DNA of 64,000 nucleotides from Candidatus Krumholzibacteriota bacterium (GCA_029262065.1 JAJDAC010000041.1:62001-126000), one strand, 5' to 3'; shown: positions 21,303 to 52,474, numbered from the stretch's first letter. Translations and numbers: made by a program. Notes: generated by a model from the letters alone, not told the origin.

Positions 21303-21899
21303 TCATCCTCCGTCGTACAAGGCCTTCACCGCTCCCCAAGACGAGGAAGTAGTTGCAACGGTACTGGTGGAGAGCCTCAGAGCATTGGAGTTGAGGTCCC
21401 AGCTTGCGAACCGATGCAACAGGCTCGGGCCGCATTCGAGCCACCCAGGCGCTTCGCCGTTGAAACTACTGGGATCCACCGGGTTCAGTCGAATCCACGC
21501 CGAGTCGGCTTCTTCCAACAACATTGCCCGGAACGTGACCACGGTCAGCAACGGAGCGCCAGACAGACACTCACCGGTTCCCACGATGAACGGCATGATA
21601 CCGTCGGAAAAACCGCCGCCAAAATTCAGCGAGTGCTCGTTCCCGAACTCGACGGCCATGAATGCAATGCTGGGATCCAACTCGACCTGCACCTCGTAGG
21701 CCGAGAGCGCCCTTCCTTCGGGATCGATGACCAGGTAGAATTCAAACGGTTCCAGAGGTGTAACCGCGCCCGAGTTTACCTGTTCATCGGGCGACATACT
21801 CAGGAAGATGGATCCCAGTGCCGGACCATGTTGCGCCCAGGACGCACCCGACCACAAGAGAAGTGAAATACTCAACGCTGGAATCAAGATTCTTTTCAT
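21303..21899 (-). CDS. Secreted beta-sandwich (cohesin-like) protein ending in SWGAVKALYDGG
   Basis: A 198-aa protein with a signal peptide (MKRILIPALSISLLLWSGASWAQ). The body alternates strands in the way cohesin-like beta-sandwiches do: FEFYLVIDPEGRALSAYEV, VELDPSIAFMAVEFG, LLTVVTFRAM. No enzyme motif is visible. The C-terminus SWGAVKALYDGG shares SWGAV(K/R) with the secreted protein at 13008-13598. ATG 21899 was chosen as the start of the signal peptide; upstream in-frame codons have no ribosome site. Domain assignment is by eye and tentative. Confidence 0.7.
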   Translation of the reverse strand: MKRILIPALSISLLLWSGASWAQHGPALGSIFLSMSPDEQVNSGAVTPLEPFEFYLVIDPEGRALSAYEVQVELDPSIAFMAVEFGNEHSLNFGGGFSDGIMPFIVGTGECLSGAPLLTVVTFRAMLLEEADSAWIRLNPVDPSSFNGEAPGWLECGPSLLHRFASWDLNSNALRLSTSTVATTSSSWGAVKALYDGG

Positions 21900-21921
21900 G
21901 ATTGCCCCATTCGGTTTCGGT

Positions 21922-22005
21922 AGGCAGGGGACACTGCCTCGCAACGGGAGCTAGACCAGTTCGCAGGACCGCCAGGGGTTGGGACACGGCACATCGAACG
22001 AACTG
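21922..22005 (-). other. Structured leader of the 21.3 kb gene
   Basis: Two inverted repeats lie upstream of the ATG at 21899: AGGCAG-N6-CTGCCT (21922-21939) and CAGTTCG (21957-21963) pairing with CGAACTG (21999-22005) across 35 nt. A TATATG-like -10 is near 22020. This may be a folded 5' UTR; it matches no riboswitch I know. Confidence 0.25.
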
Positions 22006-24635: not shown

Positions 24636-27600
24636 CTACCAGGGAGCTCGCTCGCTTCCCACGGTAACGAAGGCCGCCCAATAGAACGGGTGGGCATATT
24701 CTTCGGAATCCAGGAGTTTTGCCCGGGCTCGCCGCAGCGACTCCGCCGCCGGCCGGTCCTTTTCGAACATCTCCTTATATAGGTTCTCCATGAGCGCGGC
24801 CGTGGACTCGTCGGATACCGGCCACAGGCTGGCCACCACACCACGGGCACCCGCGCCAAGGAACGCGCGGGTGAGCCCCACGACTCCTTCGCCCTTCTGC
24901 AACCGGCCGCGTGCGCTCTCGCAGGCCGAGAGAACCACCAGGCTCTGACTCAGTGGCAACGAGAAGATCTCCAGGGAGTAGAGATAGCCGTCCTCACCCG
25001 AATCGGTTTCGGTGCCCAGGGCAATGCTGGACCGGCTCGGCTCGGCCGCGTCGATCAGTCCGTGTGCGGCCAGGTGCAGCACGCGCGGAGCCCGCTCGCG
25101 TAGCTCGCGTTTCAGTGCCGATTCCGTGGCCTCGGCTCCCACCAGAAGACGGCTCCGCTTCTTTCCCACCGATTCGCCGATGGCCTCCACTTCGTTTCGA
25201 GAATACGGAAGCGCGCTCAGTCCCCGTGCCTCGTCGTAGAGAGGATCTCCGGCCGCCAGCAACTCGAGCTCTGGCTTTTCCCCATCCGCCCGTTCACGCA
25301 ACCCCAACCACACAGTGGCCGATGGCGCGTAGACCAGTGGCACATCTCGCCCCAGGAACGGTAGCGAACCCCAAGGAGCACTTGCTTCGGAGTCGGCAGA
25401 AAGAAGTACCTCGAACGGCAAGTCGAAGAGAACGCCATCGGGCACGATCACAACCGCATCGGCGGCGTGAACCCGAGCATTGGCCGGTTGCAACAAGCGG
25501 TCATAGAGACTTCGTGCCTGCGAACGAAGTACGGCGTCGGCACCGCCCCGTGCTGCAATGGCCGCCCGGAGCTTTTCGATCCCAACCTCCAACTCGGCCC
25601 GCGGCGGAAGCTCCACCATCTCCACCGACTCTCGATCGACAACCCACATGTAGGACGCGCTGTCGCCCAGCGCGTATTCCAGAAGCAGCACGCCGCGCGG
25701 CAGACCGGCGGCAACCGCTTCCAACGACAGCGGTGAAGCCGCCGGGACCGAAGCGCCAAGGGTCTCTCTGGTGTGGCGTTCCCGTAGAGATGCCATCTGT
25801 TCTTCGATCCTGAAACGCGCACCTCGTCCCTCCGGGCCCGGCGGCGCCGTATACAAAGAGTCGAGCAGTGCTTCCATGCCCGGAACCTCGCCGGCGGGAA
25901 GCGCGCTCTGCACCAGATCCAGCAACCCTCGCGCCTTCAACCGTTCGGCCACTGAGAATGCACGAGACGTCCATACTTCGCCCGCGTCCTCGTTTGACTT
26001 GCCAACGTAGTAAGCCAGAACTCCCTCGTAGGCCTTGCCGCGATCGCCTCGCACGAACCCCGTACCCACGGCCGCGTCGCTCACGCGATTCGCCTCGAGA
26101 GCATCGAGCGCTCGGTCGTAGTAGTAGGCCGCGCTGTCGGGCACATCCTGCTCGAAACTGTGGGCCAGACCCAGCAGAGGCAGCCAGTCAATCGCGTACT
26201 GGCCCGACGACTCAAGTTGCACCATGGCTCGTCGGTACCGCTCGCGAGCCTGCACGTTTTCCCCCGCAATCGCTTCCACGTTGGCCAGGCCGATCTCGCT
26301 GAGCGGAATGGTCGCTTCCGCGCCATCGGCTTGATCCTGCGCCAACGCCTCGGTCCAGTGCCCACGCGATTTCTCGACATCACCCAGCTCCAGGGCGGCG
26401 TCTCCGGCCAGGGCATTCGCATCGCGATAACGACGCGGCGCTCCCTGGGCCGCGGCCAGCTCGATCGCCTGCTCGGCGGAGGAGAGAGCACGATCGTTGG
26501 CCGAAACCGAGCGATACAACTCGCCCAGATTGATCAACGCCTCGGTTTGCAGATCGGGCAGCCCCCGCTCCTGCGCCAACTTCAAGGCCGCCACCAGATC
26601 TTCCCGCGCGCGATCGAAGTCGCCGACATTGTGAAAAGTCAGTCCACGAACCCTATGTAGAATGACCGCCATGGTGGGTTCTTCGACCCGCTCCGCCAAG
26701 GCTTCGGCCAGCTCCAACTCGCCGAGCGCTTCCTGGTATCTTCCTTCCAGACGGAGGTTGTCGGCGTAGTTGACCCGACCAATCAATTCATCATCGGCGG
26801 CGTCGATCTGCTGCGCGATGTCGATAACCCTGGCGTAGGAACTCGCGGCTTCGTCGTAACGCCCCATGCTGCTGTGCAGATTCCCGATGCTGGTGTACAG
26901 CTCGGAAAGCCGTTTCATTTCGCCCTGCGCTTCCAGGATGGGAAGCGCCTCTTCGAAGTGCTTGCGCGCGGGTACGAGCTGACCCAGCACGTAGTACACG
27001 TTCCCCAGGTACGTCAGCGTCGTCCCCAGTCCACCCATGTCACCGATGGCGCGGCGCATTTCCTTGGCCTGACCGTAGAAATCGCCGGCCGTCTCGTATT
27101 CTCCGAGTTGCATGGCGACCGAACCCAGGCCGTTGAGGGTCCGACCCTGGAGCAAACGATCTTCCACCGCGCGCCGAGCGACGATGGCTTTTTCGTAGGC
27201 GGCCCTTACGGCCTGCATGTCTCCGCGGGCCCATTCGAAAACCCCAAGCGTTCCCCAAGCGACGGCCTCATCGTGACTGGCGCCGATCTGGGCGTAGATC
27301 TCCAGTGCCTGCTTCAGGTGCTCTGCGCCAAGCGCCGGATCACCGGCCGCGCGGGCCTCGCTGGCCTGGGCCTCCAGGCCCTTGGCTCGGCGAAACTCGG
27401 CCCAGTCGGCGTCGCTGCGGTTTTGGTAGGCCAAGACCAGTGTGGCGGGAACCGAGGAGCCCGATGCCGTGGCGTGATGGCTGGCGACGGTTTCGGCGAA
27501 GTCCACGTTCTCCTGAGCGGCGCCCGCATCTCCGTCAGCCTGGAGGGCGATGGCCACGTCGATCATCTGGGCCACGGCCGCACCCACCAACAGCGGGTTC

Positions 27601-27764
27601 TCGGCCACGAATTCGTGGAGTGCGGAGTCGCCACCAGTCTGGAAGGCGGCGTCGGCCTCCACGATGAAACCAGTCACCGGATCGGCCGTCGCGGGCGAGA
27701 AAAAGCCCGAAAAGGCCAACAAAACCAGCGAAAAGGCAAAAACCAACCGTCGAAAATGGTGCAT
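24636..27764 (-). CDS. Exported TPR-CHAT caspase-like protease
   Basis: A 1042-aa protein with a signal peptide (MHHFRRLVFAFSLVLLAFSG, ending ...PATA). About 15 TPR units cover ~60-600, for example AVAWGTLGVFEWARGDMQAV. The C-terminal CHAT domain at ~700-1040 has the dyad His901 (LHLAAHGLID) and Cys948 (VVLSACESARG), followed by the usual GLTRAFLGAGARGVVASLW. CHAT proteases are clan CD cysteine peptidases. Many with TPRs are regulated by protein partners. Export is notable, since the best-known TPR-CHAT protease, Craspase, is cytosolic. Start 27764 has AGGAAG upstream. It ends 3 bp from imuB, convergently. Confidence 0.92.
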   Translation of the reverse strand: MHHFRRLVFAFSLVLLAFSGFFSPATADPVTGFIVEADAAFQTGGDSALHEFVAENPLLVGAAVAQMIDVAIALQADGDAGAAQENVDFAETVASHHATASGSSVPATLVLAYQNRSDADWAEFRRAKGLEAQASEARAAGDPALGAEHLKQALEIYAQIGASHDEAVAWGTLGVFEWARGDMQAVRAAYEKAIVARRAVEDRLLQGRTLNGLGSVAMQLGEYETAGDFYGQAKEMRRAIGDMGGLGTTLTYLGNVYYVLGQLVPARKHFEEALPILEAQGEMKRLSELYTSIGNLHSSMGRYDEAASSYARVIDIAQQIDAADDELIGRVNYADNLRLEGRYQEALGELELAEALAERVEEPTMAVILHRVRGLTFHNVGDFDRAREDLVAALKLAQERGLPDLQTEALINLGELYRSVSANDRALSSAEQAIELAAAQGAPRRYRDANALAGDAALELGDVEKSRGHWTEALAQDQADGAEATIPLSEIGLANVEAIAGENVQARERYRRAMVQLESSGQYAIDWLPLLGLAHSFEQDVPDSAAYYYDRALDALEANRVSDAAVGTGFVRGDRGKAYEGVLAYYVGKSNEDAGEVWTSRAFSVAERLKARGLLDLVQSALPAGEVPGMEALLDSLYTAPPGPEGRGARFRIEEQMASLRERHTRETLGASVPAASPLSLEAVAAGLPRGVLLLEYALGDSASYMWVVDRESVEMVELPPRAELEVGIEKLRAAIAARGGADAVLRSQARSLYDRLLQPANARVHAADAVVIVPDGVLFDLPFEVLLSADSEASAPWGSLPFLGRDVPLVYAPSATVWLGLRERADGEKPELELLAAGDPLYDEARGLSALPYSRNEVEAIGESVGKKRSRLLVGAEATESALKRELRERAPRVLHLAAHGLIDAAEPSRSSIALGTETDSGEDGYLYSLEIFSLPLSQSLVVLSACESARGRLQKGEGVVGLTRAFLGAGARGVVASLWPVSDESTAALMENLYKEMFEKDRPAAESLRRARAKLLDSEEYAHPFYWAAFVTVGSERAPW

Positions 27765-27835
27765 ACTGTCGCTTCCTGATGAATTCCCTCGAACCTGGGC
27801 AGCGTACACCCTTCACGCCGCTCAGCCCACCGGTC

Positions 27836-28489: not shown

Positions 28490-31400
28490 ATGAAGCAATT
28501 CACGACTACAAGCACCGCTCTTCTTATCCTTCTTCTGCTGGCCGTACCCACGTTTGCTCAGATCGTCGACACCGATGGCGACGGAGTTGAAGATGGCACC
28601 GACCTGTGTCCCAACGAAGACGCAAGTGGCTTCGACGCAAATGGCGACGGCTGCCTCGATGATCCGCGCGGAGCCCGGCACATCGAGTTCTGGGCCACCA
28701 CTGATTTGCCTCTCAACTACGTCGTACACGAGGACGGGGCCCCCAACGTTACCGACGGCAGCGATTTCGCGGCCATCGACGCCGCCTTCCAAGCCTGGAC
28801 GTCACTGCCCGACGCTTTCATGTCGGCCACCAATACCGGCACGACACCGCAAGCACAGGCCAGCGGCATCGACGGCATCCACCAGGTAACGTTCTCGGAC
28901 ATGAGTTTCAACTTCGGCAGCGCAGTGCTCGCGGTGGGCTTGACCACCTCGTTCACGGAACCCGCGAACTTTCTGGGACGCGACGTACTCCCGGGGCAGA
29001 TCGTGGATGCCGACATGATGTTCAACCCCACCAAGCAATTCCGAACTTCGAGCTGGGGTCTGCCCAACGCTGCCGATATCCAGGCCACGGCTACGCACGA
29101 GGCGGGACATCTGTTCGGCCTGGCTCACTCGGCCGTCGTGACTTCCACCATGTTCTACGTTCTGCCTCCCGGCGAGAACGCACGTACGCTCGAATCCGAC
29201 GACGAACTGGCGCTGTTCAAGGCCTACCCCGAACCCGGTCCACTGGGTTCGGCTACGCGACTCGACGGCGCGGTGGTGGACGGCGGCGGGTTCCCGGTTC
29301 CTGGCGCAGCTGTATTCCTCATAAGTACGGCCACCGGTGACACCACGGCGTGTGACTACACGCTGCCCACCGGAGCCTACACATTCGTCGGTGCTGCACC
29401 GGGTAACTACACGGTCGCCATCCATCCGTTGGACGGGTCCTCTGGCATCCGCTTCCTGGTGCCCGGGTTCATCAATCAACTGGTGCAGGATACCGCGGTG
29501 CAGAACTTCGTACCGGAGTCCTGGAGCCTCGACGAAACCACGAGCGACGACCCAACCGTAGCCGACCCGATCAACCTGGCGACGGGCGTACCCGTAACCG
29601 GTATCGACATCATCACCAACGTCGACCTCCTCCCGCCGCTGGTTCAGGACCAACGTCCACTACCCGGTTCCACCGGCGTGGGAATCGACGCGGCCGTACT
29701 CATCTCGTTCGACGAACCCATCGACGATGCGACAATTCAGGGGAATTTCTCACTGACGGATCCGTCGGGGGGATTCGTGTCCGGGTTGGCTTCAATTTTC
29801 AGGGACGACCGGGTGATCTCCTTCACCCCGAATCGGCCTCTCGACTTCGGAACCGACTACACCCTCACGCTGGGCAGCGGTCTGAGCGACCGCTTCGGCA
29901 ATCCGCTGGGCAGCGATCAGGAGGCTACGTTCTCCACCGAGCCCCGCCCCGCGGTGTCGATCAACAGTCTTACCCCCAATCGCGGCGTGGCCGGAACCAG
30001 CGTCGTGATCAACGGCGAGGGATTCGATGTAGATACGGCAAACACCACGGTGCTCTTCGACGGCATCCCCGCCACGATCACCTCGGCGTCTTCCATCCGA
30101 CTCATCGCCACGGTTCCCTCGTCGATCGATGTTGGCAGTTACCAGGTCAGTGTCACGGTAGCGGGTACGACGAACGAGACCAGCAACGATCTCTTGTTCA
30201 GTGTCCTCACGTTGCAGGAGATTGCGCGCGGAACCGACGTGGGCGTGGCCAACCTGGCCGGGGCGCCTCGTGCGCTCACGACGAAACAAGATGGTTCGCT
30301 TGCCTACGTCGGCACCAGCGTCGGCGTATCGACCGTTGTCGTCGACCCCGCTCAGCCCAGCTACCTGACTTCAGATCCCATTTCGCAACTCAGTGACCCT
30401 ATTGCGGCCATCGACATCACGCCGGACGGCCGCCGGGTCTACGCTCTCAGTCGAGCCCAGCAGCGCCTGCATTGGATCGATGCGGACGCAACCTCAGCGA
30501 ACTTCAACGAGGTGCTCGCAACGATCGATTTGAGCGAGGAACCGCTGGGTATCGCGATTGAACCCGCCGGCAAGCGTGCGTTCGTGCCCATGGCCGATGG
30601 AAGCGTCCAGATCTGGGATGTGAAGTTCGACGACGGCACCTACGGCAACACGTTCAACCGCCAGATCGGACAGATCGACAACGTGGCCGGCGGCGCGGTG
30701 GGATCGGTGGCCTTCGATCCCAGCAACGAGCTACTCCTGCTTCCAACCGGCGCCGGGACTCTCGCCATCTACGCAATGGAAACCCTCGAAGTGTTGGCCG
30801 AAGTAAACGTGGGAGTAGACCCGCGGCGGGTCAAAGTCGACCCCGCCGGAAAACTGGCCTACGTCACCGATGGCAATGGCATTGTATCGGTAGTGTCGCT
30901 GGGCGATCTCGCCGAGGCGGCCGCGAATGGGACCGCCCCGGCCGTCCCTGCTTTCAAGGTGCAGGACATCGAATTGGGCGGCACGGCCCGGGGTCTTGCA
31001 ATCACCCCAGCCGCCCTGTTCGCCTACGTTGCCAATCGCGAGTTCGATCAGGTTGAGGTCATTGACCTCGATTCCTCGAGCTCCACCTTCCGCACATCGG
31101 CGGCCGAGATCCCCACCGGATCGAATCCCGTCGCAACGTCGCTTTCCCTGGATGCGAACTATCTGTTCACTTTGGTCGAGGGCGCCAACCAACTGCAGGT
31201 GACAGCCATCGGCTTCGGCCCGGTACTACGCAGTGTGTACCCCCGACTCGTACAACCAGGTGACTACGTTGCCATCTCCGGTTCTGGCTTCACAGACCCC
31301 GAGTGTGCGACCACCGTGTGCCCACCCGGAACCGGCGAGCGCATCTGGTTTGGTGACATCGAAGCCACGAACTTTGAGATCATCCCCACCGGCGATGCTT

Positions 31401-34400
31401 TCTTGAATGTACGCGTGCCCGCTGGATTCACCGGCGGACCGGTGCGGGTGCAAGTTCTGGGAGGCGGACCACCCACGGCGCCCGATCCCTACTCGAATGC
31501 CATTTTCTTGCGCGCGCTGGAACCGGGCGACCCGTTTGACCCGGAGATTGGCGAAGGTCTGAGTTCGTCGATCTCGATGGATTCGAGCAACGGCTACGAT
31601 TTCGATGACGCCGAGGAGCAGGGACTCACCAACGTGGCCGAGGTCTCTCCCAACGGTGAAATCGTCGTACTGGGCGGTTTCGGCACCATCTGGATTTTGG
31701 ACGGACGCACCACCAGCAACACGTACAATCAGGAGCTGGCCGAACTTCCCATGAGCGTGGATGAGCGGGTCGAAGACGTAGCGTTTTCAGCCGATGGATC
31801 GCGCCTCTACGTCTCGCTCCGAACGTTCCAGATAGAGCCTGGCGACGGTGCGGCGGTCGTCGACATCGTCGACGTGAATCCCAACAGCCCCAGCTTCGCA
31901 ACGGTTCTGGGGCAAATTGACATGAGCCTCATCGACAACTGTTTCGGACCGGCTCGGATCTACACGCATCCCGCGGGTGACTATCTGTTCATTGAGGACT
32001 CGTGCAACGATGCGTTGGTGGTGGCCGACATCCAGCCAGGATCCTTGACCGAGAACGAGATTGTCATACGGCCCACTTTCTTCGGTACCAATCGCGGCGG
32101 CGACTTCCACCCCGGCGGAGACCACTTGTACACCGTTGTTGATACCGAGGTGAAGATCACCAACACCAACCCGTTGAGCGCGGGATGGAGCGAAACCAAC
32201 GACTTTTTTCCTGCAACAACATTCTGGAATATGACGCCGCACACGGTAGCGTTCACACCGGACGGCGCAAGGGCGATGGTCCTGCTATCACAAGACAATC
32301 CCCCGGGAGGCGCCAACAGCGAGAACTACTACGTCGCCACCCTCGACACGAGCGATCCGCGAAACCCGGTGGAGCTGTATCCCCCCCAGTTTGTCCTCGC
32401 TGGAGAAACCCTGACGGCTCCGGCGGGAGAGATCATCGTTTCTCCTCAAGGGCACCGCATGATCGTGCAGGTCGCACGCTTCGGTGTGTCGCTGTGGGAC
32501 ATCACTGCAGCGACCTACGTGAGCATTGCCAGTGTCGGCAGCGAAGGCTCCACGGATACGGCGGCTGGCCTTGCCTTTACTCCCGACGGCGAACGCGCGT
32601 ACTTCACGGAGCGTCAGTCCTCAACTGTGGGCTACAACCGCGCCCAGCTTCTGAACTTCGTCTCGGCAAACTCCACTGACATAACCGTTCTTTCGGGGGA
32701 TGCCCAGGTTGGCGTGGCGGGGCAACCGCTACCGGCCCCCGTGCGAATCCAGATCACGGACGTAAATCAGTTTCCCAGACCCGGTGTTGCCCTTCAGGTA
32801 AGCATCATCGGGGGCGGATCTCTTCCCAACGGGAGCGACCGACAGATCTTGTCCACGAACAACAATGGGATTGCGGAGATCAACTGGACACTGGGACCCA
32901 ACCCCGATGTGCCGGGCCAGACCACTCCGGGCAACCGGATGTTCTTGAACCTAGGCAGCACGGGCCAACTGCCAGTTGCGTTCTACGCCGACTCGATCGA
33001 GAACCCCGCGTTGCTACCTCTGAACTTCGTGCAGGTTCTGCCCGCCGACGAGGCCACGAACGTATCGGCTACCACGTCCGTACAGGCCATCTTCTCGCGT
33101 CCGGTCGATCCGGCGACCGCCAATCTCACCGCGTTCTTCGTACATCCTGAAGCGGGAGTCGATCCGGTACCAGCCATCGTGGGCCTGGCCGACAACGCCC
33201 GACGGGTGTCGCTCACACCCATCACGCCGCTGGCCTTTGATACGGCCTACGACGTGGAGATCACGGGTGGCCTGCAAGACACCGACGCGAACGCATTGAC
33301 CAATCCCACGACGACCTCGTTCGTCACCTCATTTCCACCGGCCTTGCGACTCAGCTCAGTGAGCCCACCCAGCGCCACCGTGGGAATCGAATTGATCTTG
33401 GGCGGGCGAGGATTCAATGCCGACCCTGCTTTGAACACGGTGTTCTTCAACAACGTGGCCGTCACCGCGGTGGACGCCGGACCCGACTTCTTGCGCGTGC
33501 GCGTTCCCGCGAATGCCACCACCGGATTGATCCGCGTGGAAGCCAACTCACAGGTCAGCTCCACGCTGGGGTTCACGGTGCTGGTGCCAAACACGTCGCC
33601 GCTCGATGAAGTCGTAGCCTCTTTGGGCAGCGGTTCGTCTACCAAAGGCGTGTCGCTCTCACCAGACGGCACTCGTGCCTATACGCTGAGCCCGGAAGCG
33701 AATCTGGTCATTCCGATCGACATGGAGACCTTCACCAGCGGCGACGGTATTCCGGTGGGCAACAATCCGGTGTCCATCGACATTCACCCCGACGGCACCC
33801 TTGCCTACGTGGCCAACTTTGGCTCGAACGACATATCTGTCATCGATGTCGACCCCACCTCGGGCACCTTCGAAGAGGTTGTCGCTCGCATACCCACGGG
33901 CAACTCTCCCATCGATCTCGCCGTTTCACCGCAGGGAGACGACGTATTTGTCGCCCACGCCGCGGAGACGTTCTTCAACATCATCGATGGCAACTCCTCC
34001 AGCTCCACGTTCAACCAGGTCGTGGCCAGCGTGGGCTCGGGAACCACCTCGAAGGCCGTGGCCATCGATCCCGACGGAACCCGAGTGTTCTTCGGCACCA
34101 ACGTGGGCTACTTCATCGTGGAGCAGCCCGGCTTCGAAACCGTGGTGGCCAGCGTCGCCAGCGGCTCGTCGACGAAAGCCCTGAAGATCACGCCCGACGG
34201 AACGTTGCTCATCGTGCTGGACACGACGGGGTCGGTCGACATCTACGATGTCAACCAGACCAGCTCGGCGTTCAATTCGGTGGTGGCCTCGCTGGGTAGT
34301 GGCTCTTCGACCAAGGGAGTCAGCCTCTCTCCCGATGGCACGTTGCTCTACTTGTTCCAGGAAGATAGCGACGACATCCTGGTGTTCTCGCTGGAGATCC

Positions 34401-35803
34401 TGAACGGCGTGTCGGCCATGGATGAAGCCACGACACCGCCGGCGCAGGTCGCCGTGAACCTGGTGAAGACCGTCAACTTCGGCCCGGATCCCAGCGCCAT
34501 GGCGTTCGATCCCACCGGCGGCGGTCTGGCCATCGTGGCCACCGCGGGTGATCTACAGCTCAAGTTGATCAACACCAGCAGCGTGTCCCTGACAACGGTC
34601 GCGGCGACCATTCGGGTCACGCCCCGCACCCTCAACCTGAACTCCAACGGACGCTACGTCACTGGTTCGATCGAGCTGCCGCCGAATATCTTCCCGAAGG
34701 ACATCGTCAAGTCGACCGTGATCTTGTACAGCGATAATCCGCTCGTGGGAATTCTGGCCGACCCGGACAAAGGGGAAATCACGGACGAGAACGGAAACGG
34801 CATCGATGAGCTGATCGTGAAGTTCGACCGGGCTGCTTTCCAGGAGATCATTCCCGAGGGAGACAGCGTACTGGTGGTCATCGAGGGCCTACTCGAAGAC
34901 GGACGCACCTTCCGTGGCGAAGACTTCATTCGCACGAAGCGCCCATCGGTGACCTTCCCCACCGGAGGCGAGGTGTTGGAATCGGGTGCGACGGTCGATG
35001 TGACCTGGACCTCACCCAGCGACGTAGATGCGGACTTCGTTGACGTGTACTACTCCACGGACGGCGGCGATAACTGGTTCCCGATTGCCGACAAGGTCCC
35101 GGACACCGGAGCCACCCCCTGGAACTTGCCGTTCATAGAGACTGAGGATGCTCGGGTTCTCGTGGTCTTGTTCGAGAACAACAGCGAGGCCGGCGGAGGC
35201 ATCAGCCCAGCTCCGTTTTCTATCACGGGAATGCCCGTGGCCGTGTCTTTGCAAGACGTGCAGCTGGATGTTCAGCAGGGCAACGCCGTCCTTCGCTGGA
35301 ACGTCTACGCCGCCGCTGCACGCCCGGGCTTCCATGTGCTGCGCAGTGAACGTGAGGACGGAAACTTCGAGCGCATCACCCACCAAACGGTGACCGAAGG
35401 CGAACTCGGATTCGAGTTCGAAGACGAAGCCATTCGAGGCAACCGTACCTACTACTACCTGCTTGAAGAATCCTGGGGTGGCAACGCCGGGACCAAGCAC
35501 GGACCGTTCATGCTCAAGAACCTGGTAAGCAACTCACTCGAGCAGAACTATCCGAACGCGTTCAACCCCATTACCAACATCCGGTTTTCGGTCGCCCAGC
35601 GCGGCCCCGTGAAGTTGGTTCTCTACAATGTCGCCGGACAAAGGGTGAAGACGTTGATCAACAAGGTGCTCGAAGCCGACACCTACCAGGTGGAGTGGAA
35701 CGGGCGCGATGAGAACGGCAAGGATGTCTCCAGCGGCATCTATCTGTACCGCATGGAGACCTCGGGATTCGTGGCGTCGCGGAAGATGACCCTGGTGCGC
35801 TAG
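28490..35803 (+). CDS. Giant secreted matrixin-like metalloprotease with propellers, Ig/IPT domains and FlgD-like C-terminus
   Basis: A 2437-aa protein. Signal peptide 1-23, then a thrombospondin type 3-like Ca-binding segment at ~25-55 (DTDGDGVEDGTDLCPNED). The metalloprotease domain is at ~60-255 with zinc site HEAGHLFGLAH (H203, H207, H213) and a Met-turn TSTMFYV. After it come a carboxypeptidase-regulatory-like domain (~265-330), a Big_5-like domain (~380-480), an IPT/TIG domain (~485-575), a YVTN/lactonase-type propeller (~575-905), a second IPT, a second propeller, a Big_1-like domain (~1395), another Big_5 and IPT, a third propeller with repeats, a FnIII-like segment, and a FlgD/type-9-sorting-like end (NYPNAFNPITNIRFSV ... 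SSGIYLYRMETSGF). Likely surface-attached or secreted. Confidence 0.9.
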   Translation: MKQFTTTSTALLILLLLAVPTFAQIVDTDGDGVEDGTDLCPNEDASGFDANGDGCLDDPRGARHIEFWATTDLPLNYVVHEDGAPNVTDGSDFAAIDAAFQAWTSLPDAFMSATNTGTTPQAQASGIDGIHQVTFSDMSFNFGSAVLAVGLTTSFTEPANFLGRDVLPGQIVDADMMFNPTKQFRTSSWGLPNAADIQATATHEAGHLFGLAHSAVVTSTMFYVLPPGENARTLESDDELALFKAYPEPGPLGSATRLDGAVVDGGGFPVPGAAVFLISTATGDTTACDYTLPTGAYTFVGAAPGNYTVAIHPLDGSSGIRFLVPGFINQLVQDTAVQNFVPESWSLDETTSDDPTVADPINLATGVPVTGIDIITNVDLLPPLVQDQRPLPGSTGVGIDAAVLISFDEPIDDATIQGNFSLTDPSGGFVSGLASIFRDDRVISFTPNRPLDFGTDYTLTLGSGLSDRFGNPLGSDQEATFSTEPRPAVSINSLTPNRGVAGTSVVINGEGFDVDTANTTVLFDGIPATITSASSIRLIATVPSSIDVGSYQVSVTVAGTTNETSNDLLFSVLTLQEIARGTDVGVANLAGAPRALTTKQDGSLAYVGTSVGVSTVVVDPAQPSYLTSDPISQLSDPIAAIDITPDGRRVYALSRAQQRLHWIDADATSANFNEVLATIDLSEEPLGIAIEPAGKRAFVPMADGSVQIWDVKFDDGTYGNTFNRQIGQIDNVAGGAVGSVAFDPSNELLLLPTGAGTLAIYAMETLEVLAEVNVGVDPRRVKVDPAGKLAYVTDGNGIVSVVSLGDLAEAAANGTAPAVPAFKVQDIELGGTARGLAITPAALFAYVANREFDQVEVIDLDSSSSTFRTSAAEIPTGSNPVATSLSLDANYLFTLVEGANQLQVTAIGFGPVLRSVYPRLVQPGDYVAISGSGFTDPECATTVCPPGTGERIWFGDIEATNFEIIPTGDAFLNVRVPAGFTGGPVRVQVLGGGPPTAPDPYSNAIFLRALEPGDPFDPEIGEGLSSSISMDSSNGYDFDDAEEQGLTNVAEVSPNGEIVVLGGFGTIWILDGRTTSNTYNQELAELPMSVDERVEDVAFSADGSRLYVSLRTFQIEPGDGAAVVDIVDVNPNSPSFATVLGQIDMSLIDNCFGPARIYTHPAGDYLFIEDSCNDALVVADIQPGSLTENEIVIRPTFFGTNRGGDFHPGGDHLYTVVDTEVKITNTNPLSAGWSETNDFFPATTFWNMTPHTVAFTPDGARAMVLLSQDNPPGGANSENYYVATLDTSDPRNPVELYPPQFVLAGETLTAPAGEIIVSPQGHRMIVQVARFGVSLWDITAATYVSIASVGSEGSTDTAAGLAFTPDGERAYFTERQSSTVGYNRAQLLNFVSANSTDITVLSGDAQVGVAGQPLPAPVRIQITDVNQFPRPGVALQVSIIGGGSLPNGSDRQILSTNNNGIAEINWTLGPNPDVPGQTTPGNRMFLNLGSTGQLPVAFYADSIENPALLPLNFVQVLPADEATNVSATTSVQAIFSRPVDPATANLTAFFVHPEAGVDPVPAIVGLADNARRVSLTPITPLAFDTAYDVEITGGLQDTDANALTNPTTTSFVTSFPPALRLSSVSPPSATVGIELILGGRGFNADPALNTVFFNNVAVTAVDAGPDFLRVRVPANATTGLIRVEANSQVSSTLGFTVLVPNTSPLDEVVASLGSGSSTKGVSLSPDGTRAYTLSPEANLVIPIDMETFTSGDGIPVGNNPVSIDIHPDGTLAYVANFGSNDISVIDVDPTSGTFEEVVARIPTGNSPIDLAVSPQGDDVFVAHAAETFFNIIDGNSSSSTFNQVVASVGSGTTSKAVAIDPDGTRVFFGTNVGYFIVEQPGFETVVASVASGSSTKALKITPDGTLLIVLDTTGSVDIYDVNQTSSAFNSVVASLGSGSSTKGVSLSPDGTLLYLFQEDSDDILVFSLEILNGVSAMDEATTPPAQVAVNLVKTVNFGPDPSAMAFDPTGGGLAIVATAGDLQLKLINTSSVSLTTVAATIRVTPRTLNLNSNGRYVTGSIELPPNIFPKDIVKSTVILYSDNPLVGILADPDKGEITDENGNGIDELIVKFDRAAFQEIIPEGDSVLVVIEGLLEDGRTFRGEDFIRTKRPSVTFPTGGEVLESGATVDVTWTSPSDVDADFVDVYYSTDGGDNWFPIADKVPDTGATPWNLPFIETEDARVLVVLFENNSEAGGGISPAPFSITGMPVAVSLQDVQLDVQQGNAVLRWNVYAAAARPGFHVLRSEREDGNFERITHQTVTEGELGFEFEDEAIRGNRTYYYLLEESWGGNAGTKHGPFMLKNLVSNSLEQNYPNAFNPITNIRFSVAQRGPVKLVLYNVAGQRVKTLINKVLEADTYQVEWNGRDENGKDVSSGIYLYRMETSGFVASRKMTLVR
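33611..34342 (+). repeat. Four VVASxGSGSSTKxxxxxPDGT repeats inside the giant protease
   Basis: Copies begin at 33611, 34019, 34142 and 34280, each 21 codons. Copies 1 and 4 encode nearly the same peptide with many synonymous differences, so the protein rather than the DNA is under selection. They mark blades of the third propeller; unequal spacing (408, 123, 138 bp) shows insertions between blades. Confidence 0.75.
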
Positions 35804-47573: not shown

Positions 47574-49277
47574 GTGGCCGAATCTCCACGATCCTCCGCG
47601 ACCTCTTCCGCGGTTTCGACAGCCGCGATGGTCGCCGCGCAGTCGGTAGCTTCGCGCGGAAACTCGACCCTGCCGCCTGACATGCTCGATCAGGTCGCTC
47701 GCCGTATGGCCATCATGGGCGTGGCCACCGCCTTGGTGTGGATTCTCACGCGGATCATCTATCGCACCGGCCTCGAGCACCAGACCCTGGCCCCCATGCG
47801 CCAGGTCATCTTCTTATGTGGCCTGAGCCTCTCGCTTGTCATGGTCTATCTGGCCCGATTTCGGAAACTGGCCCCCGACTCGCTGCTACGCTTGGGATTC
47901 ACCTTCGAAATCGCTACGGCATTTCTGATTGCGGTAGCGGTGCAGTCCACGCCCTTGGAGTTTGCCCACCCCACGCTGGGCAACCTACCGGTGCACGGGG
48001 TGTCGTGGCTGGCGTCGTGGGTGATCGTGTACTCCGCCATCGTTCCCGCTCAACCACGCGCTATCTTTCTGGCCGCGATCTTGTCCGTGAGCATGGAACC
48101 CGCCTGGATCTACGTCGACGCAGCGCTGCATTCGAGCTTTCCCGATCGCTGGAGCGCGTTGGTAGGACCACCCATTCCCAAGCCACCGGTCAGTAGTATC
48201 CTGACCATCTACTCCATCAGCCTGTTGTACGCGGCGCTGGCCGTCATCCCCAGCAAGATCGTATTGCGATTATCACAACAGGTAGGGCGCGCGCGGCGCA
48301 TGGGCAGCTACCACTTGACCAGCAAGTTGGGCAGCGGCGGCATGGGCGAAGTCTGGATGGCCCATCACCGCATGCTGGCCCGACCCGCGGCCATCAAACT
48401 GGTGAGGTCCGACTTGCTGGGGGCGCGTAGTCGCGCTGAAGCGGGCGAGACCCTACAAAGATTCGAGCGCGAGGCGCAGGCCACCGCGTCACTTCAATCA
48501 CCCCACACCATCCAGGTGTTCGACTTCGGCCTGAGCGACGACCACACGTTCTACTACGTCATGGAACTCCTCGACGGCCTCGATCTGGATTCGCTGGTGC
48601 GCCAGTACGGCCCGGTCGATCCCGCGCGTAGCGTCTACATGTTGCGCCAGGCCTGTCACTCGCTGGCCGACGCCCACGCCATCGGATTCACGCACCGCGA
48701 CATCAAGCCCGCGAATCTGTTCACGTGTCGTTTGGGGCAGGACTACGACTTCGTGAAGGTCCTGGACTTCGGGTTGGTCAAACGCTCGAAAGCCAACAAC
48801 GACGTCACGGTCACGCAGGAAGGCCTGACCGGGGGTACGCCCGCGTTCATGGCCCCCGAGGCCGTGTTGGGCGATCCCATCGATCACCGGGCCGACCTGT
48901 ACTCGCTGGGTTGCGTTGGTTCGTGGCTTCTCACCGGACGCCTGTTGTTCGACGAGGAGAATCCCATGAAGATGGCAATGGCCCACGTGCAAGAACCACC
49001 CCCCGCACCATCGGCCGCCAGCGAGTTGGAGATTCCCGCCAAGCTGGACGCGCTGATTTTGGAGTGTCTGGCCAAGAAACCCGACGATCGCCCTTCGTCG
49101 GCCAACGAGATCGACGCACGGCTGGCCGAAATCGAATTCGACCAGCCGTGGAACAACGATCGTGCCGCGCGGTGGTGGCAGATGCACCAGCCCAAGCGCA
49201 AGAGCCCAACCGCGGGGGCCACCGAGATTCCCGTCTCGGTGACCCAACTCTTCAAACAGGACTCGGACCCCGATTGA
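47574..49277 (+). CDS. Membrane Ser/Thr protein kinase with N-terminal six-helix domain
   Basis: A 567-aa protein. About six hydrophobic segments lie between residues 45 and 230, then a PknB-like kinase at ~245-520: glycine loop LGSGGMGEVW, Lys275 (AAIKLV), catalytic loop HRDIKPANL with Asp376, DFG at ~398, and GTPAFMAPEA. Most bacterial PknB-type kinases put the membrane segment after the kinase; here it comes first. There is no extracytoplasmic sensor such as PASTA. The start is GTG 47574 with GGGAG. The C-tail has a Ser/Thr-rich stretch that could be autophosphorylated. Confidence 0.93.
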   Translation: MAESPRSSATSSAVSTAAMVAAQSVASRGNSTLPPDMLDQVARRMAIMGVATALVWILTRIIYRTGLEHQTLAPMRQVIFLCGLSLSLVMVYLARFRKLAPDSLLRLGFTFEIATAFLIAVAVQSTPLEFAHPTLGNLPVHGVSWLASWVIVYSAIVPAQPRAIFLAAILSVSMEPAWIYVDAALHSSFPDRWSALVGPPIPKPPVSSILTIYSISLLYAALAVIPSKIVLRLSQQVGRARRMGSYHLTSKLGSGGMGEVWMAHHRMLARPAAIKLVRSDLLGARSRAEAGETLQRFEREAQATASLQSPHTIQVFDFGLSDDHTFYYVMELLDGLDLDSLVRQYGPVDPARSVYMLRQACHSLADAHAIGFTHRDIKPANLFTCRLGQDYDFVKVLDFGLVKRSKANNDVTVTQEGLTGGTPAFMAPEAVLGDPIDHRADLYSLGCVGSWLLTGRLLFDEENPMKMAMAHVQEPPPAPSAASELEIPAKLDALILECLAKKPDDRPSSANEIDARLAEIEFDQPWNNDRAARWWQMHQPKRKSPTAGATEIPVSVTQLFKQDSDPD

Positions 49278-49292: not shown

Positions 49293-50390
49293 TCAGGGAC
49301 AAGCCAGGATCGGCCCCGGTCCACCCGTGAACAGGTACGCCATCAGATACACCGCATCGGCGATATCTACGTCGGAGTCCCCGTTTACACCGCCTTGGCA
49401 TAGTGGGGATGGGGCTGCTCCACCCACGAACAAGTACTGCAGCAGGAACACCGAATCGGCGATGTCGACCGATCCATCCGAGTTGACGTCGCCTGCACCA
49501 TCGAGCCAGGTTGTGAGCTTGTCCTCGATCCAGCAGTTCATGCGTCCGCCCTGTTGCACCGTGAACAGGCCTTGGTCCCAACACACCGGATCGGGGCCAT
49601 AGGGAATCATGTAGTTCTCGGGCTGCGCCGGCGGATACGCCACGCCGGTGCAAGGCCCCGTACCGGGGGGGCTCGGCGGACAACCCGCGGGTGAAGGTGG
49701 CGTATCCGAGCAGAAGTCGCCCGACACATCTCCGTTCGAACCATCGGCCAGCTCGAAACATGGACTGCACAGCGGAACCTCGAACGTTCCGTGATGCAGA
49801 TGCCACAGTCCCAGGGTATGACCCATTTCGTGCAGTATGAGCTTCTGACCGGTGCCGAACCGGTCGTCATCGACCTGCATTCCGCCCAGCGCGGTGAGCG
49901 CCACGGGGTCCCAAGGGACCACGGCGAGTCCACCAAGGCCCGCCGGGTAGTCAGTCACCCACACGTGCACCTGCGTTTGCGGATTCACGGCGTAGGTCTG
50001 CTTCATGAGATCCACATCGGCACCGGGTACGTCGGTACGAAACGTGGAATCGTTCACGAACGCAGTCGTGGCCACGAACTGGATGTTGTGCGGGGCAAAC
50101 TCGGCGTTCATGAGGGCGAGCTCGTCGCTTACCTCCTGCGCCGTGGCCGCGGGGTTGCTTCCGTCGTCTTCGGCGAAGACCACGAACCGTACGCGTACCG
50201 TCTTCACGGGATCACCCGGCTGGGGAATAGCCGCGTCACGGTTGACCGGATCGTCACACGGACCTTCGAGCGGACAGCCGGGCGTCTTGGCGTACGGACT
50301 GGGCGGCGCTTCGGTCACGCAACGCCATTCTTCGGCCTGCGAGGGAACGGCGGCCATGAGAATCACCAACAGAAACATATGAATGCGCAT
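49293..50390 (-). CDS. Secreted M43-type metalloprotease with C-terminal dockerin
   Basis: A 365-aa protein. Signal peptide (MRIHMFLLVILMAAVPSQA). The catalytic domain has zinc site HEMGHTLGLWH (H187, H191, H197) and a Met-turn in ENYMIPYG, as in the pappalysin/M43 family. It ends with two calcium-loop dockerin segments, GDVNSDGSVDIADSVFLL and VNGDSDVDIADAVYLMAYLF. ATG 50390 has AGGAGG upstream; the much longer open frame is a shadow. It lies 8 bp after the paralogue at 50399 and is the last gene of that operon. It probably cleaves extracellular peptides; the dockerin suggests attachment to a cohesin-like partner. Confidence 0.9.
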   Translation of the reverse strand: MRIHMFLLVILMAAVPSQAEEWRCVTEAPPSPYAKTPGCPLEGPCDDPVNRDAAIPQPGDPVKTVRVRFVVFAEDDGSNPAATAQEVSDELALMNAEFAPHNIQFVATTAFVNDSTFRTDVPGADVDLMKQTYAVNPQTQVHVWVTDYPAGLGGLAVVPWDPVALTALGGMQVDDDRFGTGQKLILHEMGHTLGLWHLHHGTFEVPLCSPCFELADGSNGDVSGDFCSDTPPSPAGCPPSPPGTGPCTGVAYPPAQPENYMIPYGPDPVCWDQGLFTVQQGGRMNCWIEDKLTTWLDGAGDVNSDGSVDIADSVFLLQYLFVGGAAPSPLCQGGVNGDSDVDIADAVYLMAYLFTGGPGPILACP

Positions 50391-50398
50391 GTGGCCTC

Positions 50399-51520
50399 CT
50401 ACGGGCAAGCGTCCAGCGGCGCTGGACCCTGGGTAAACAGGTACGAGAGCAGATAGATGGAGTCGCCAATGTCGATCGACGTGTCGTCGTTCACATCGGC
50501 CACGCACGGGGTGGTCGGAGCAGGACCCGATGCGAACAGGTACGCCAACAGGAACACGCTGTCGCTGATGTCCAACTGGCCATCGGCATTGACGTCGCCC
50601 GTCGGCGGAGGTCCCAGCTGACCGGTGAGCTGCGCGTCGGTCCAGCAATGCATGCGTCCCGATTGTTCGGGGGTGAACAGGTTCCAGCACCCGGTCCCAC
50701 CCTGTTCGGCGTAGCTCATGAAGTTTTCGGGCTGCGTGCTGCCCCAGGGAACTCCCGCGCAGGCATCGATGCCCGGCGCGTCCGCGCACACGCCGTACTG
50801 CGGCGTGGCCGGTGTGTCGGCGCAGAAATCGCCCACGAAGTCGGCGGCGGGATCCTGCGGAACCTCGTGACACGCGTCGGTGCAGGCCAGGCCGCGAAAC
50901 GTGTGCCACAGGCCGAGTTGGTGCCCCATTTCGTGCGTCAGAACCCGGTGGGGATCGCCGAAACCGAATTCATCCATGACAATTCCACCCACGGGCGAAA
51001 GTGCATCTGGATCCCACGGATACGTCGCACGGCCCACCAGGAACGGATTCATACCGCACACGAACACGTTCACCGTGGTGTCAAAGTCCACCGCGTAGGC
51101 CATCTGCATGGCGTCGATGGTCGTGCTCAACGGAATGAAGACCCGGTAGGCGGAGTCGTTCACGAATGCCGTCTCGTAGGTGAACTGCACCCGATGCGGC
51201 GCGAAGTCGGCGTTGAGTTGCGCCACCTGCCAATCAACATCGGCCTGCGTGGCCGCGGGGTTGGCCCCCGACGTTTCGGCGATCACCACGAAGCGAAGCC
51301 GCACGAACTTGATGGGCACACTCGGACCGGGAATGGCTGCGTCACGCAGAATAGGGTCGTCGCAGGGACCCTCGGGAACGCATCCCGGACTCTTGTCCGG
51401 CCCGACTTTGCGCAGCCAAGCCTCTTGCGTGTCGCAGAATTGCTGCGCACCGACCGAAGACGCCACGGACAGGAGAGTAGCGAGTAGCACGAAGGCGGTT
51501 GAGATCTTCACTGTCACCAC
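50399..51520 (-). CDS. Secreted M43-type metalloprotease with C-terminal dockerin (paralogue)
   Basis: A 373-aa paralogue of the next gene in the same operon. Signal peptide, then conserved core with CVPEGPCDDPILRDAAIP, zinc site HEMGHQLGLWH (H196, H200, H206) and Met-turn ENFMSYAE. Two dockerin repeats, GDVNADGQLDISDSVFLL and VNDDTSIDIGDSIYLLSYLF. The loop after the zinc site differs from its partner, which suggests different substrates. The GTG at 51520 follows the previous stop directly; GTG 51511, with better spacing from AGGTGG, is an alternative that shortens the N-terminus by three residues. Confidence 0.9.
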   Translation of the reverse strand: MVTVKISTAFVLLATLLSVASSVGAQQFCDTQEAWLRKVGPDKSPGCVPEGPCDDPILRDAAIPGPSVPIKFVRLRFVVIAETSGANPAATQADVDWQVAQLNADFAPHRVQFTYETAFVNDSAYRVFIPLSTTIDAMQMAYAVDFDTTVNVFVCGMNPFLVGRATYPWDPDALSPVGGIVMDEFGFGDPHRVLTHEMGHQLGLWHTFRGLACTDACHEVPQDPAADFVGDFCADTPATPQYGVCADAPGIDACAGVPWGSTQPENFMSYAEQGGTGCWNLFTPEQSGRMHCWTDAQLTGQLGPPPTGDVNADGQLDISDSVFLLAYLFASGPAPTTPCVADVNDDTSIDIGDSIYLLSYLFTQGPAPLDACP

Positions 51521-52474
51521 CTACTCGCGCACGACGACGAGCTTGCGCGTGAACTCGTGGCGCTGGGCGCCGTCGTTCGCGTACGCAACCATTCGTGCGA
51601 AGTACACACCCACCGGCATGTCGGAAACGTCGATCCAACGTTCGTGGGCGCCGCTACCCAGATTTTCGCCATCGACCAGCGACCGCACCCGCTGCCCGCG
51701 CACGTCGTATAAGGAAAGGTCCACGCGGGCGGAAGTGCCCAGTTCGAACGCGATGCGCGAGCGATGGCTGGCCGGCGAGGGAAGCCCACCACGCAGCGCG
51801 AAGCGCGTCGCTTCGGGTACTCCCACGACCACATCGATCGCGGTCACCCTGAGCGCCTCGACCAATGGCGCCCAGGTCTGCGCGCCGCCGCCACTGGTGA
51901 CGGCAAGACCAAGCGCGCCACCGCCAGCCAGCGGCAGCTCGCCCACATCCACGGTGTAGCTACCGGCGGCCACCGCATTCAAGCGAAGGCGCGCCACCGG
52001 CGCCGTGCCGTTCCAGCCCGATCCCGCTACACCCTGCTGCAACGAGGACAGCAGGGCTTGTGCATCGCCGGTAGCATCGAATACCGAGCGAACGTCCCAG
52101 GCGTCGAACGGCGCCAGCAGCTGAAGTTGGCTGTCCGTGGGGTAGGCTGGAGCCACGGTGCTTTCGGGCGCCACGCCCGGGCCGGGGGCACCCACCAGCA
52201 AACCCGCGGCCGGACCCTGGATTTCGATCGGCAGCGTGAAACCGCCAACATCGTAGCCGGCACCGGTTTGCACTTCGAGCCACACGAACACGTCGCGGCT
52301 CTCGCCCACGGGAATTTCCAGATTGCCCAGACGCGGCGAATTGGGGCGATCGGTATCGCTGAACCAGACGGCGTCGGTGGTTCGGACCGGCGGCGTCGCC
52401 ACCGCGGATGACGCGACAAGGGCGCCGCTGAGACCCAGCGTGACGGCCAGGCCGAGAAACACGAATCGGAGCAT
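51521..52474 (-). CDS. Secreted beta-sandwich (cohesin-like?) protein with FlgD-like C-terminal domain
   Basis: A 317-aa protein with a signal peptide (MLRFVFLGLAVTLGLSGALV). The middle (~35-210) alternates strands and turns as in cohesin-like sandwiches: SRDVFVWLEVQTGAGYDVGG, then FTLPIEIQGPAAGLLV, then VARLRLNAVAAGSYTVDVG. The last ~85 residues form the FlgD/sorting-type domain seen in other secreted proteins here (VDLSLYDVRGQRVRSL, DMPVGVYFARMVA). The gene is first in an operon with two dockerin-bearing proteases and starts with GAGGAG upstream. A cohesin assignment is an inference from fold pattern and context. Confidence 0.75.
   Translation of the reverse strand: MLRFVFLGLAVTLGLSGALVASSAVATPPVRTTDAVWFSDTDRPNSPRLGNLEIPVGESRDVFVWLEVQTGAGYDVGGFTLPIEIQGPAAGLLVGAPGPGVAPESTVAPAYPTDSQLQLLAPFDAWDVRSVFDATGDAQALLSSLQQGVAGSGWNGTAPVARLRLNAVAAGSYTVDVGELPLAGGGALGLAVTSGGGAQTWAPLVEALRVTAIDVVVGVPEATRFALRGGLPSPASHRSRIAFELGTSARVDLSLYDVRGQRVRSLVDGENLGSGAHERWIDVSDMPVGVYFARMVAYANDGAQRHEFTRKLVVVRE

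What the first reader, a model, noticed from the sequence alone, without database searches (positions are those of the whole stretch)
49293..52474. Possible dockerin-cohesin protease assembly encoded in one operon
Two paralogous M43 metalloproteases each end in a full pair of dockerin calcium loops. The first gene of the operon encodes a secreted beta-sandwich with a pattern like cohesin domains plus a FlgD-like sorting domain. If the sandwich is a cohesin, this is a minimal cell-surface protease complex: one anchored scaffold and two dockable enzymes. Dockerins are mostly known from cellulosomes; a dedicated proteolytic pair would be new.
Basis: partly seen in the sequence, partly recalled or inferred. 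Interest (0 to 1): 0.62.

Follow-up and report, generated by a model that had tools for sequence, protein, structure and literature searches.

The report
Dockerin-tailed M43 protease pair operon
Two side-by-side secreted zinc proteases really do end in dockerin-type docking modules, but the neighbouring gene proposed as their cohesin scaffold is not recognisable as a cohesin, so this is best read as a new example of the known non-cellulosomal dockerin-bearing proteases, with the docking partner unproven.

Summary
Three abutting minus-strand genes encode a secreted beta-rich protein with a C-terminal sorting tail (52474-51521) and two 47%-identical pappalysin-type M43 proteases (51520-50399, 50390-49293), each ending in a dockerin pair. 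One of the four calcium loops lacks its first acid. The key claim, that the sandwich is a cohesin, is not supported by direct test: Pfam Cohesin does not match it even at permissive E-values. Profile alignment to cohesins of the same class is marginal (P=0.02; real cohesins reach 1e-6 to 1e-30). AlphaFold2 runs were uninformative (pLDDT about 35) and no relatives were found. A shuffle control leaves a weak hint of a very diverged cohesin-like fold. The genome has undisputed cohesins elsewhere, an equally plausible partner. In most M43 relatives of the class a sorting tail sits where these have a dockerin, so tethering in trans is plausible but unproven. A Planctomycetota M43-dockerin protease exists in a genome with no detectable cohesin. 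Dockerin-protease assemblies were already proposed (planctosome; Ca. Stygibacter). Side findings: a conserved subtilase-dockerin/cohesin cluster in seven relatives, and a class-wide C-terminal tag (SSWGxVKxLYR-stop) absent from Pfam and NCBIfam.

The parts
51521..52474 (-). Gene 1 (317 aa): signal peptide, ~185-aa beta-rich region without detectable relatives, C-terminal Por_Secre/T9SS-type sorting tail
   Evidence: orphan status
51827..52387 (-). Putative beta-sandwich (residues 30-216), the proposed cohesin; not matched by PF00963; marginal colinear profile alignment to class cohesins
   Evidence: structure prediction uninformative
51587..51781 (-). Sorting tail of gene 1 (residues 232-296)
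   Evidence: TIGR04183 23.2 bits and Por_Secre_tail 25.1 bits; tails of this kind matched at about 150 places in the genome, the number scored
50399..51520 (-). Gene 2 (373 aa, GTG start abutting the stop of gene 1): secreted M43 pappalysin-type metalloprotease with C-terminal dockerin
50621..51181 (-). M43 catalytic domain of gene 2; HEMGHQLGLWH at 50935-50903, Met-turn NFMSY
   Evidence: pappalysin-1 match, residues 114-300, E 1.8e-31
50402..50602 (-). Dockerin of gene 2: loops DVNADGQLDISD and DVNDDTSIDIGD, helices (S)VFLLAYLF / (S)IYLLSYLF, Cys between the repeats and CP at the end
   Evidence: Dockerin_1 22.6 bits, 24.8 bits in genome scan; 4dh2_B E 1.5e-4
51434..51436 (-). Cys29 of a Cys-x-Thr motif in the N-terminal segment, conserved in the M43 relatives; likely cysteine-switch of a latent zymogen (inference)
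   Evidence: C-D-T here, C-V-T in gene 3, C-R-T L069, C-Q-T L070, C-P-T L048, C-G-T L056
49293..50390 (-). Gene 3 (365 aa, ATG with GGAGG upstream): second secreted M43 protease with C-terminal dockerin, 47% identical to gene 2
49506..50084 (-). M43 catalytic domain of gene 3; HEMGHTLGLWH at 49832-49800
   Evidence: pappalysin-1 match, residues 103-295, E 8e-21
49296..49499 (-). Dockerin of gene 3; loop 2 (GVNGDSDVDIAD) lacks the first calcium ligand
   Evidence: Dockerin_1 29.6 bits, over cut-off

Best explanation
The operon makes two secreted, probably latent (Cys-x-Thr) pappalysin-type M43 metalloproteases and one small secreted protein that carries the class's generic surface-sorting tail. 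The proteases have a dockerin where most M43 relatives in this class carry their own sorting tail. The most likely working model is that the dockerin is a calcium-dependent tether in trans: the tail-less proteases are held at the surface by a sorted partner with a cohesin-type fold. Shown: operon layout, M43 identity, dockerins, sorting tail, tail-for-dockerin difference. Inferred: docking, surface retention, partner identity (gene 1 or the multi-cohesin protein at G000:C27:157454-159550), zymogen latency.
For: M43 and dockerin matches. The dockerin repeats are near-symmetric duplicates, as in binding dockerins. M43 homologues in the same genome (C18) and in G015, G036, G038 and G042 end in a sorting tail instead of a dockerin. 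Gene 1 is cotranscribed by layout and bears a sorting tail. The genome encodes a 698-aa protein with at least two cohesins over the Pfam cut-off plus a FlgD-type tail. Elsewhere in the class a subtilase-dockerin gene lies beside a cohesin gene in seven genomes. In Zixiibacteriota an M43 protease carries a cohesin-like domain (profile P 4e-5) and a dockerin-like pair in one chain.
Against: No cohesin was detected in gene 1. No binding data. The closest M43-dockerin homologue (Planctomycetota, L069) is in a genome with no PF00963 match (completeness of that genome not stated). Most dockerins in this genome sit in the same chain as cohesin-like domains and tails, so they need not act in trans. 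Loop 2 of gene 3 is imperfect. Synteny could not be tested because gene 1 has no relatives.
Confidence: 0.48

Rival explanations
1. The dockerins do not dock to anything: they are self-standing calcium-stabilised C-terminal caps of secreted proteases, as in many non-cellulosomal dockerin proteins, and gene 1 is an unrelated co-expressed surface protein.
For: M43-dockerin protease in a Planctomycetota genome with no detectable cohesin. In the class, dockerins occur on FG-GAP, beta-helix, vWA and TIG-like proteins with no common theme, and 34 of 78 genomes have dockerins while 36 of 78 have cohesins. Gene 1 is not recognisable as a cohesin.
Against: Near-symmetric repeats, and replacement of the sorting tail that relatives carry, suggest an attachment role. 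Bona fide cohesins exist in the same genome.
Confidence: 0.38
2. First reader's model (a special case of the best explanation): gene 1 is a highly diverged cohesin and is the dedicated anchored scaffold for both proteases.
For: Operon position and sorting tail. Profile alignment to class cohesins 18.4 over 108 colinear columns, against shuffles mean 11.8, sd 2.0; no shuffle (of 200) and no control window (of 102) reached that score with 80 or more columns. Among 166 windows of sorting-tail proteins all 12 with that score and length lie in proteins with cohesin-like domains. Fusion of M43, cohesin-like domain and dockerin in L070.
Against: PF00963 silent. Alignment P only 0.02 and unstable with boundaries and profile subset. 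About 50 extra residues in the middle. AlphaFold2 uninformative. No homologues.
Confidence: 0.24
3. The partner is the genome's true cohesin protein at C27 (698 aa, cohesins plus FlgD tail), not gene 1 (another special case of the best explanation).
For: Cohesins over the Pfam cut-off with an anchor tail.
Against: Encoded elsewhere, next to a beta-helix protein; the same pair of genes occurs in other genomes of the class without this M43 operon. The M43 dockerins are a different subtype (LFxGGPxP...CP) from the other dockerins aligned from this genome.
Confidence: 0.13
4. Gene 1 is not a scaffold but a protective partner of the proteases, for example a secreted inhibitor or folding factor.
For: Same operon, secreted, orphan sequence, similar size.
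Against: A sorting tail is unusual for a dedicated inhibitor. No similarity to known inhibitors in Pfam or PDB sequence searches.
Confidence: 0.09

Closest known systems
Planctosome of freshwater Planctomycetes (Nemodlikiaceae), PMC6461901
   Same: Hypothetical surface complex in which cohesin/dockerin pairs gather secreted metallopeptidases (M12B reprolysin-like, M14) for peptide degradation
   Different: There cohesins are annotated in the anchor and adaptor proteins; here no cohesin is detectable in the operon, and the enzymes are M43 pappalysins
Cellulosome-like complex of Ca. Stygibacter (Cloacimonadota), PMC8542988
   Same: Signal-peptide proteases (S8, C25) with C-terminal dockerins and a surface-attached partner with a T9SS-type C-terminal domain
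   Different: It has a 3,755-aa scaffoldin with tandem cohesins and CBMs; gene 1 is 317 aa with at most one very diverged module
Non-cellulosomal dockerin/cohesin modules (Peer et al. 2009, known here only through citing papers; also ANME archaea PMC9012536)
   Same: Dockerins on secreted proteins outside cellulose degradation
   Different: None in kind; the M43 combination and the tandem paralogous pair are particular to this locus
Dockerin-bearing peptidases of the Ruminococcus flavefaciens cellulosome, PMC2930009
   Same: Peptidase modules linked to dockerins
   Different: They belong to a full cellulosome with many scaffoldins
Pappalysin family (M43B: human PAPP-A, mirolysin)
   Same: Catalytic domain and HExxHxxGxxH motif
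   Different: Dockerin at the C-terminus; no pappalysin accessory domains

Membership tests
Peptidase family M43 (pappalysins) | HExxHxxGxxH zinc motif and Met-turn in a metzincin domain | tested here: met
   PF05572 2.4e-9 (gene 2); pappalysin-1 1.8e-31 and 8e-21; gene 3 is below Pfam M43 reporting but aligns to gene 2 at 47%
Dockerin type I | Two 12-residue calcium loops each followed by a helix | tested here: met
   29.6 bits (gene 3) and 22.6-24.8 bits (gene 2) against a cut-off of 22.9; one of four loops lacks the position-1 acid
Dockerin type I | Calcium-dependent binding to a cohesin | not testable with these tools
   Needs purified proteins
Cohesin (gene 1) | Match to the cohesin profile PF00963 | tested here: not met
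   No match at E<=10 in hmmscan or at E<=1 in the genome scan, which does find 10 other places
Cohesin (gene 1) | Profile-profile similarity to cohesins of the same class | tested here: inconclusive
   P 0.02, probability 2%, score above nearly all controls with a long colinear alignment
Cohesin (gene 1) | Nine-strand jelly-roll fold | tested here: inconclusive
   Single-sequence AlphaFold2 pLDDT about 30-45 in the region; structural search of that model meaningless
Cellulosome or proteolytic cellulosome-like complex | Scaffoldin with several cohesins plus dockerin enzymes | tested here: not met
   No detectable cohesin in the operon; a multi-cohesin protein exists elsewhere in the genome without known link
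T9SS type A sorting domain (gene 1 tail) | Match to TIGR04183 over its cut-off | tested here: met
   23.2 bits against 23, borderline
T9SS type A sorting domain (gene 1 tail) | Type IX secretion machinery in the genome | not tested

The most novel reading that the evidence does not exclude
Gene 1 is a very diverged single cohesin with its own sorting tail, and the operon is a minimal surface protease assembly of one scaffold and two dockable pappalysins; with the subtilase-dockerin/cohesin cluster of related genomes it would show that this class repeatedly uses cohesin-dockerin pairing for surface proteolysis.
Probability: 0.22. Interest if true: 0.55.

Novelty: new member of a known kind. Interest (0 to 1): 0.3.

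Why it matters
Non-cellulosomal dockerins are widespread but rarely have an assigned partner. This locus offers a small, testable set (two dockerins, one candidate partner, one alternative cohesin protein). If docking were shown it would support cohesin-dockerin pairing as a way to hold tail-less proteases at the surface in a poorly known bacterial class.

Tried and rejected
Sandwich homologue searches in 80 class genomes, GTDB contigs and all fetched ORFs gave only spurious low-complexity overlaps (L067, L068). Two AlphaFold2 runs (full length; residues 30-217) were low-confidence in the sandwich, and a PDB fold search with the first gave meaningless TM-scores of about 0.2. A viral-contig search with gene 3 found nothing. 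A Planctomycetota-wide M43 search could not be run because a locus is not accepted as a centre. The NCBIfam hit to DVUA0089 in the sandwich (18.7 bits, cut-off 29) was not pursued as too weak. G003's M43 C-terminal region looked cohesin-like by eye but scored as background. Promoter and terminator scans were at chance level.

Full report
What is there. Three minus-strand genes abut: gene 1 at 52474-51521 (317 aa), gene 2 at 51520-50399 (373 aa), gene 3 at 50390-49293 (365 aa). Gene 2 starts at the base after gene 1's stop, gene 3 starts 8 nt after gene 2, and GGAG-type ribosome-binding sites precede genes 1 and 3. A convergent protein-kinase-like gene ends at 49277 and closes the unit. All three proteins begin with a signal-peptide-like stretch. 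The window lies in an unnamed 5.8-Mb genome (G000:C41:62001-126000).

The proteases. Genes 2 and 3 are 47% identical and belong to M43: Pfam Peptidase_M43 2.4e-9 for gene 2; human pappalysin-1 is the best PDB sequence match for both (1.8e-31, 8e-21). Both keep HEMGHxLGLWH. A Cys-x-Thr motif in the N-terminal segment is shared with relatives in other genomes and phyla. By analogy with other M43 enzymes this suggests a cysteine-switch zymogen (inference from general knowledge).

The dockerins. Both C-termini are dockerins and match solved dockerins (4dh2_B). Three of four calcium loops are complete; the second loop of gene 3 begins with G instead of D. Both belong to a subtype with helices ending YLFxxGxxP and a terminal CP. 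It occurs elsewhere in the class on a beta-helix protein, an FG-GAP protein and a TIG-like protein. The genome has eleven dockerin places in all, most in the same chain as cohesin-like domains or sorting tails.

Where relatives differ. Few genomes of the class have close M43 relatives (8 of 58 at E<=1e-10, counting the genome itself). Those in the same genome (C18) and in G015, G036, G038 and G042 end in a sorting tail instead of a dockerin, and G008 has neither. A Planctomycetota relative (L069, 43% identity) has the same M43-dockerin layout, in a genome with no PF00963 match. A Zixiibacteriota relative (L070) has M43, PKD, a cohesin-like domain (profile P 4e-5) and a dockerin-like pair in one chain. 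So the dockerin occupies the place of the anchor tail. That favours a tethering role without proving it.

Is gene 1 a cohesin? Pfam Cohesin does not report it at E<=10, while the same model finds ten other places in this genome. The region is a sequence orphan. Against an alignment of 32 cohesin-like domains from this class it scores 18.4, P 0.022, probability 2%; twelve cohesins left out in turn score 37 to 166. Controls make this slightly more interesting: shuffles average 11.8 (sd 2.0), 1 of 200 reaches 18.4, and none aligns 80 or more columns, while the sandwich aligns 108 columns colinearly; 0 of 102 windows from other window ORFs do so. Among 166 windows of sorting-tail proteins, those that do so lie in proteins with cohesin-like domains. 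The alignment is not stable to boundaries or profile choice, and only one score type was tried. I read this as a hint, about one in four, not a result. Both AlphaFold2 runs failed in this region.

Other candidate partners. The genome has a 698-aa protein with at least two cohesins over the cut-off and a FlgD tail (C27:157454-159550), next to a 1607-aa beta-helix protein. It is a cohesin by test, so a better-attested candidate than gene 1, though it is not linked to the M43 operon. The tail of gene 1 says little by itself: about 150 such tails were matched in this genome, the number scored.

Literature. Peptidase assemblies by cohesin-dockerin pairing were proposed for freshwater Planctomycetes (PMC6461901) and Ca. 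Stygibacter (PMC8542988). Dockerin-peptidases occur in R. flavefaciens (PMC2930009). No paper in the library holds both 'pappalysin' and 'dockerin'. The locus is therefore a new member of a known kind.

Verdict. Ordinary to mildly interesting. The dockerin-protease pair is real; the scaffold claim is unproven and, as 'it is a cohesin', fails its direct test. The two side findings under Noticed in passing may deserve separate follow-up, the C-terminal tag above all.

Noticed in passing
window 21306-21950 (-); loci L159-L188 and others: Short secreted proteins of this class end in a conserved C-terminal tag, about PxExSSWGxVKxLY(R/K) followed by the stop. 16 ORF ends among 2351 carried it against none in 465,030 other residues. 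A profile built from 15 of them hits all 38 class genomes searched, 8-77 places each at E<=1 (70 in this genome), and the 30 best loci are all within 7 residues of the stop. No Pfam or NCBIfam model covered the tag in the proteins scanned and no paper text holds five sample forms. Possibly an undescribed sorting or processing signal.
   Followed up: partly
L130 4786-9849, L131 3844-8626, L133 1796-8089; also G024, G075, G077, G078: Conserved cluster in seven genomes of one family of the class: an S8 subtilase with internal dockerin and sorting tail, two small genes, and a secreted cohesin protein. A better case for protease-cohesin pairing than the window operon.
   Followed up: partly
L139 2455-9378 (own genome C27), L135 3752-10627, L132, L138, L119: Conserved adjacent gene pair: giant beta-helix protein with sorting tail (dockerin detectable in some, not by Pfam in the own genome) and a multi-cohesin protein with sorting tail.
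   Followed up: partly
L070 5875-7719: Zixiibacteriota M43 protease with PKD, cohesin-like and dockerin-like pair in one chain.
   Followed up: partly
window 28490-35803 (+): 2437-aa secreted protein with matrixin (M10), TIG, beta-propeller, Ig-like domains and a FlgD tail.
   Followed up: no
window 24636-27809 (-): 1057-aa TPR-CHAT protein; CHAT proteases can be part of bacterial defence or death pathways.
   Followed up: no
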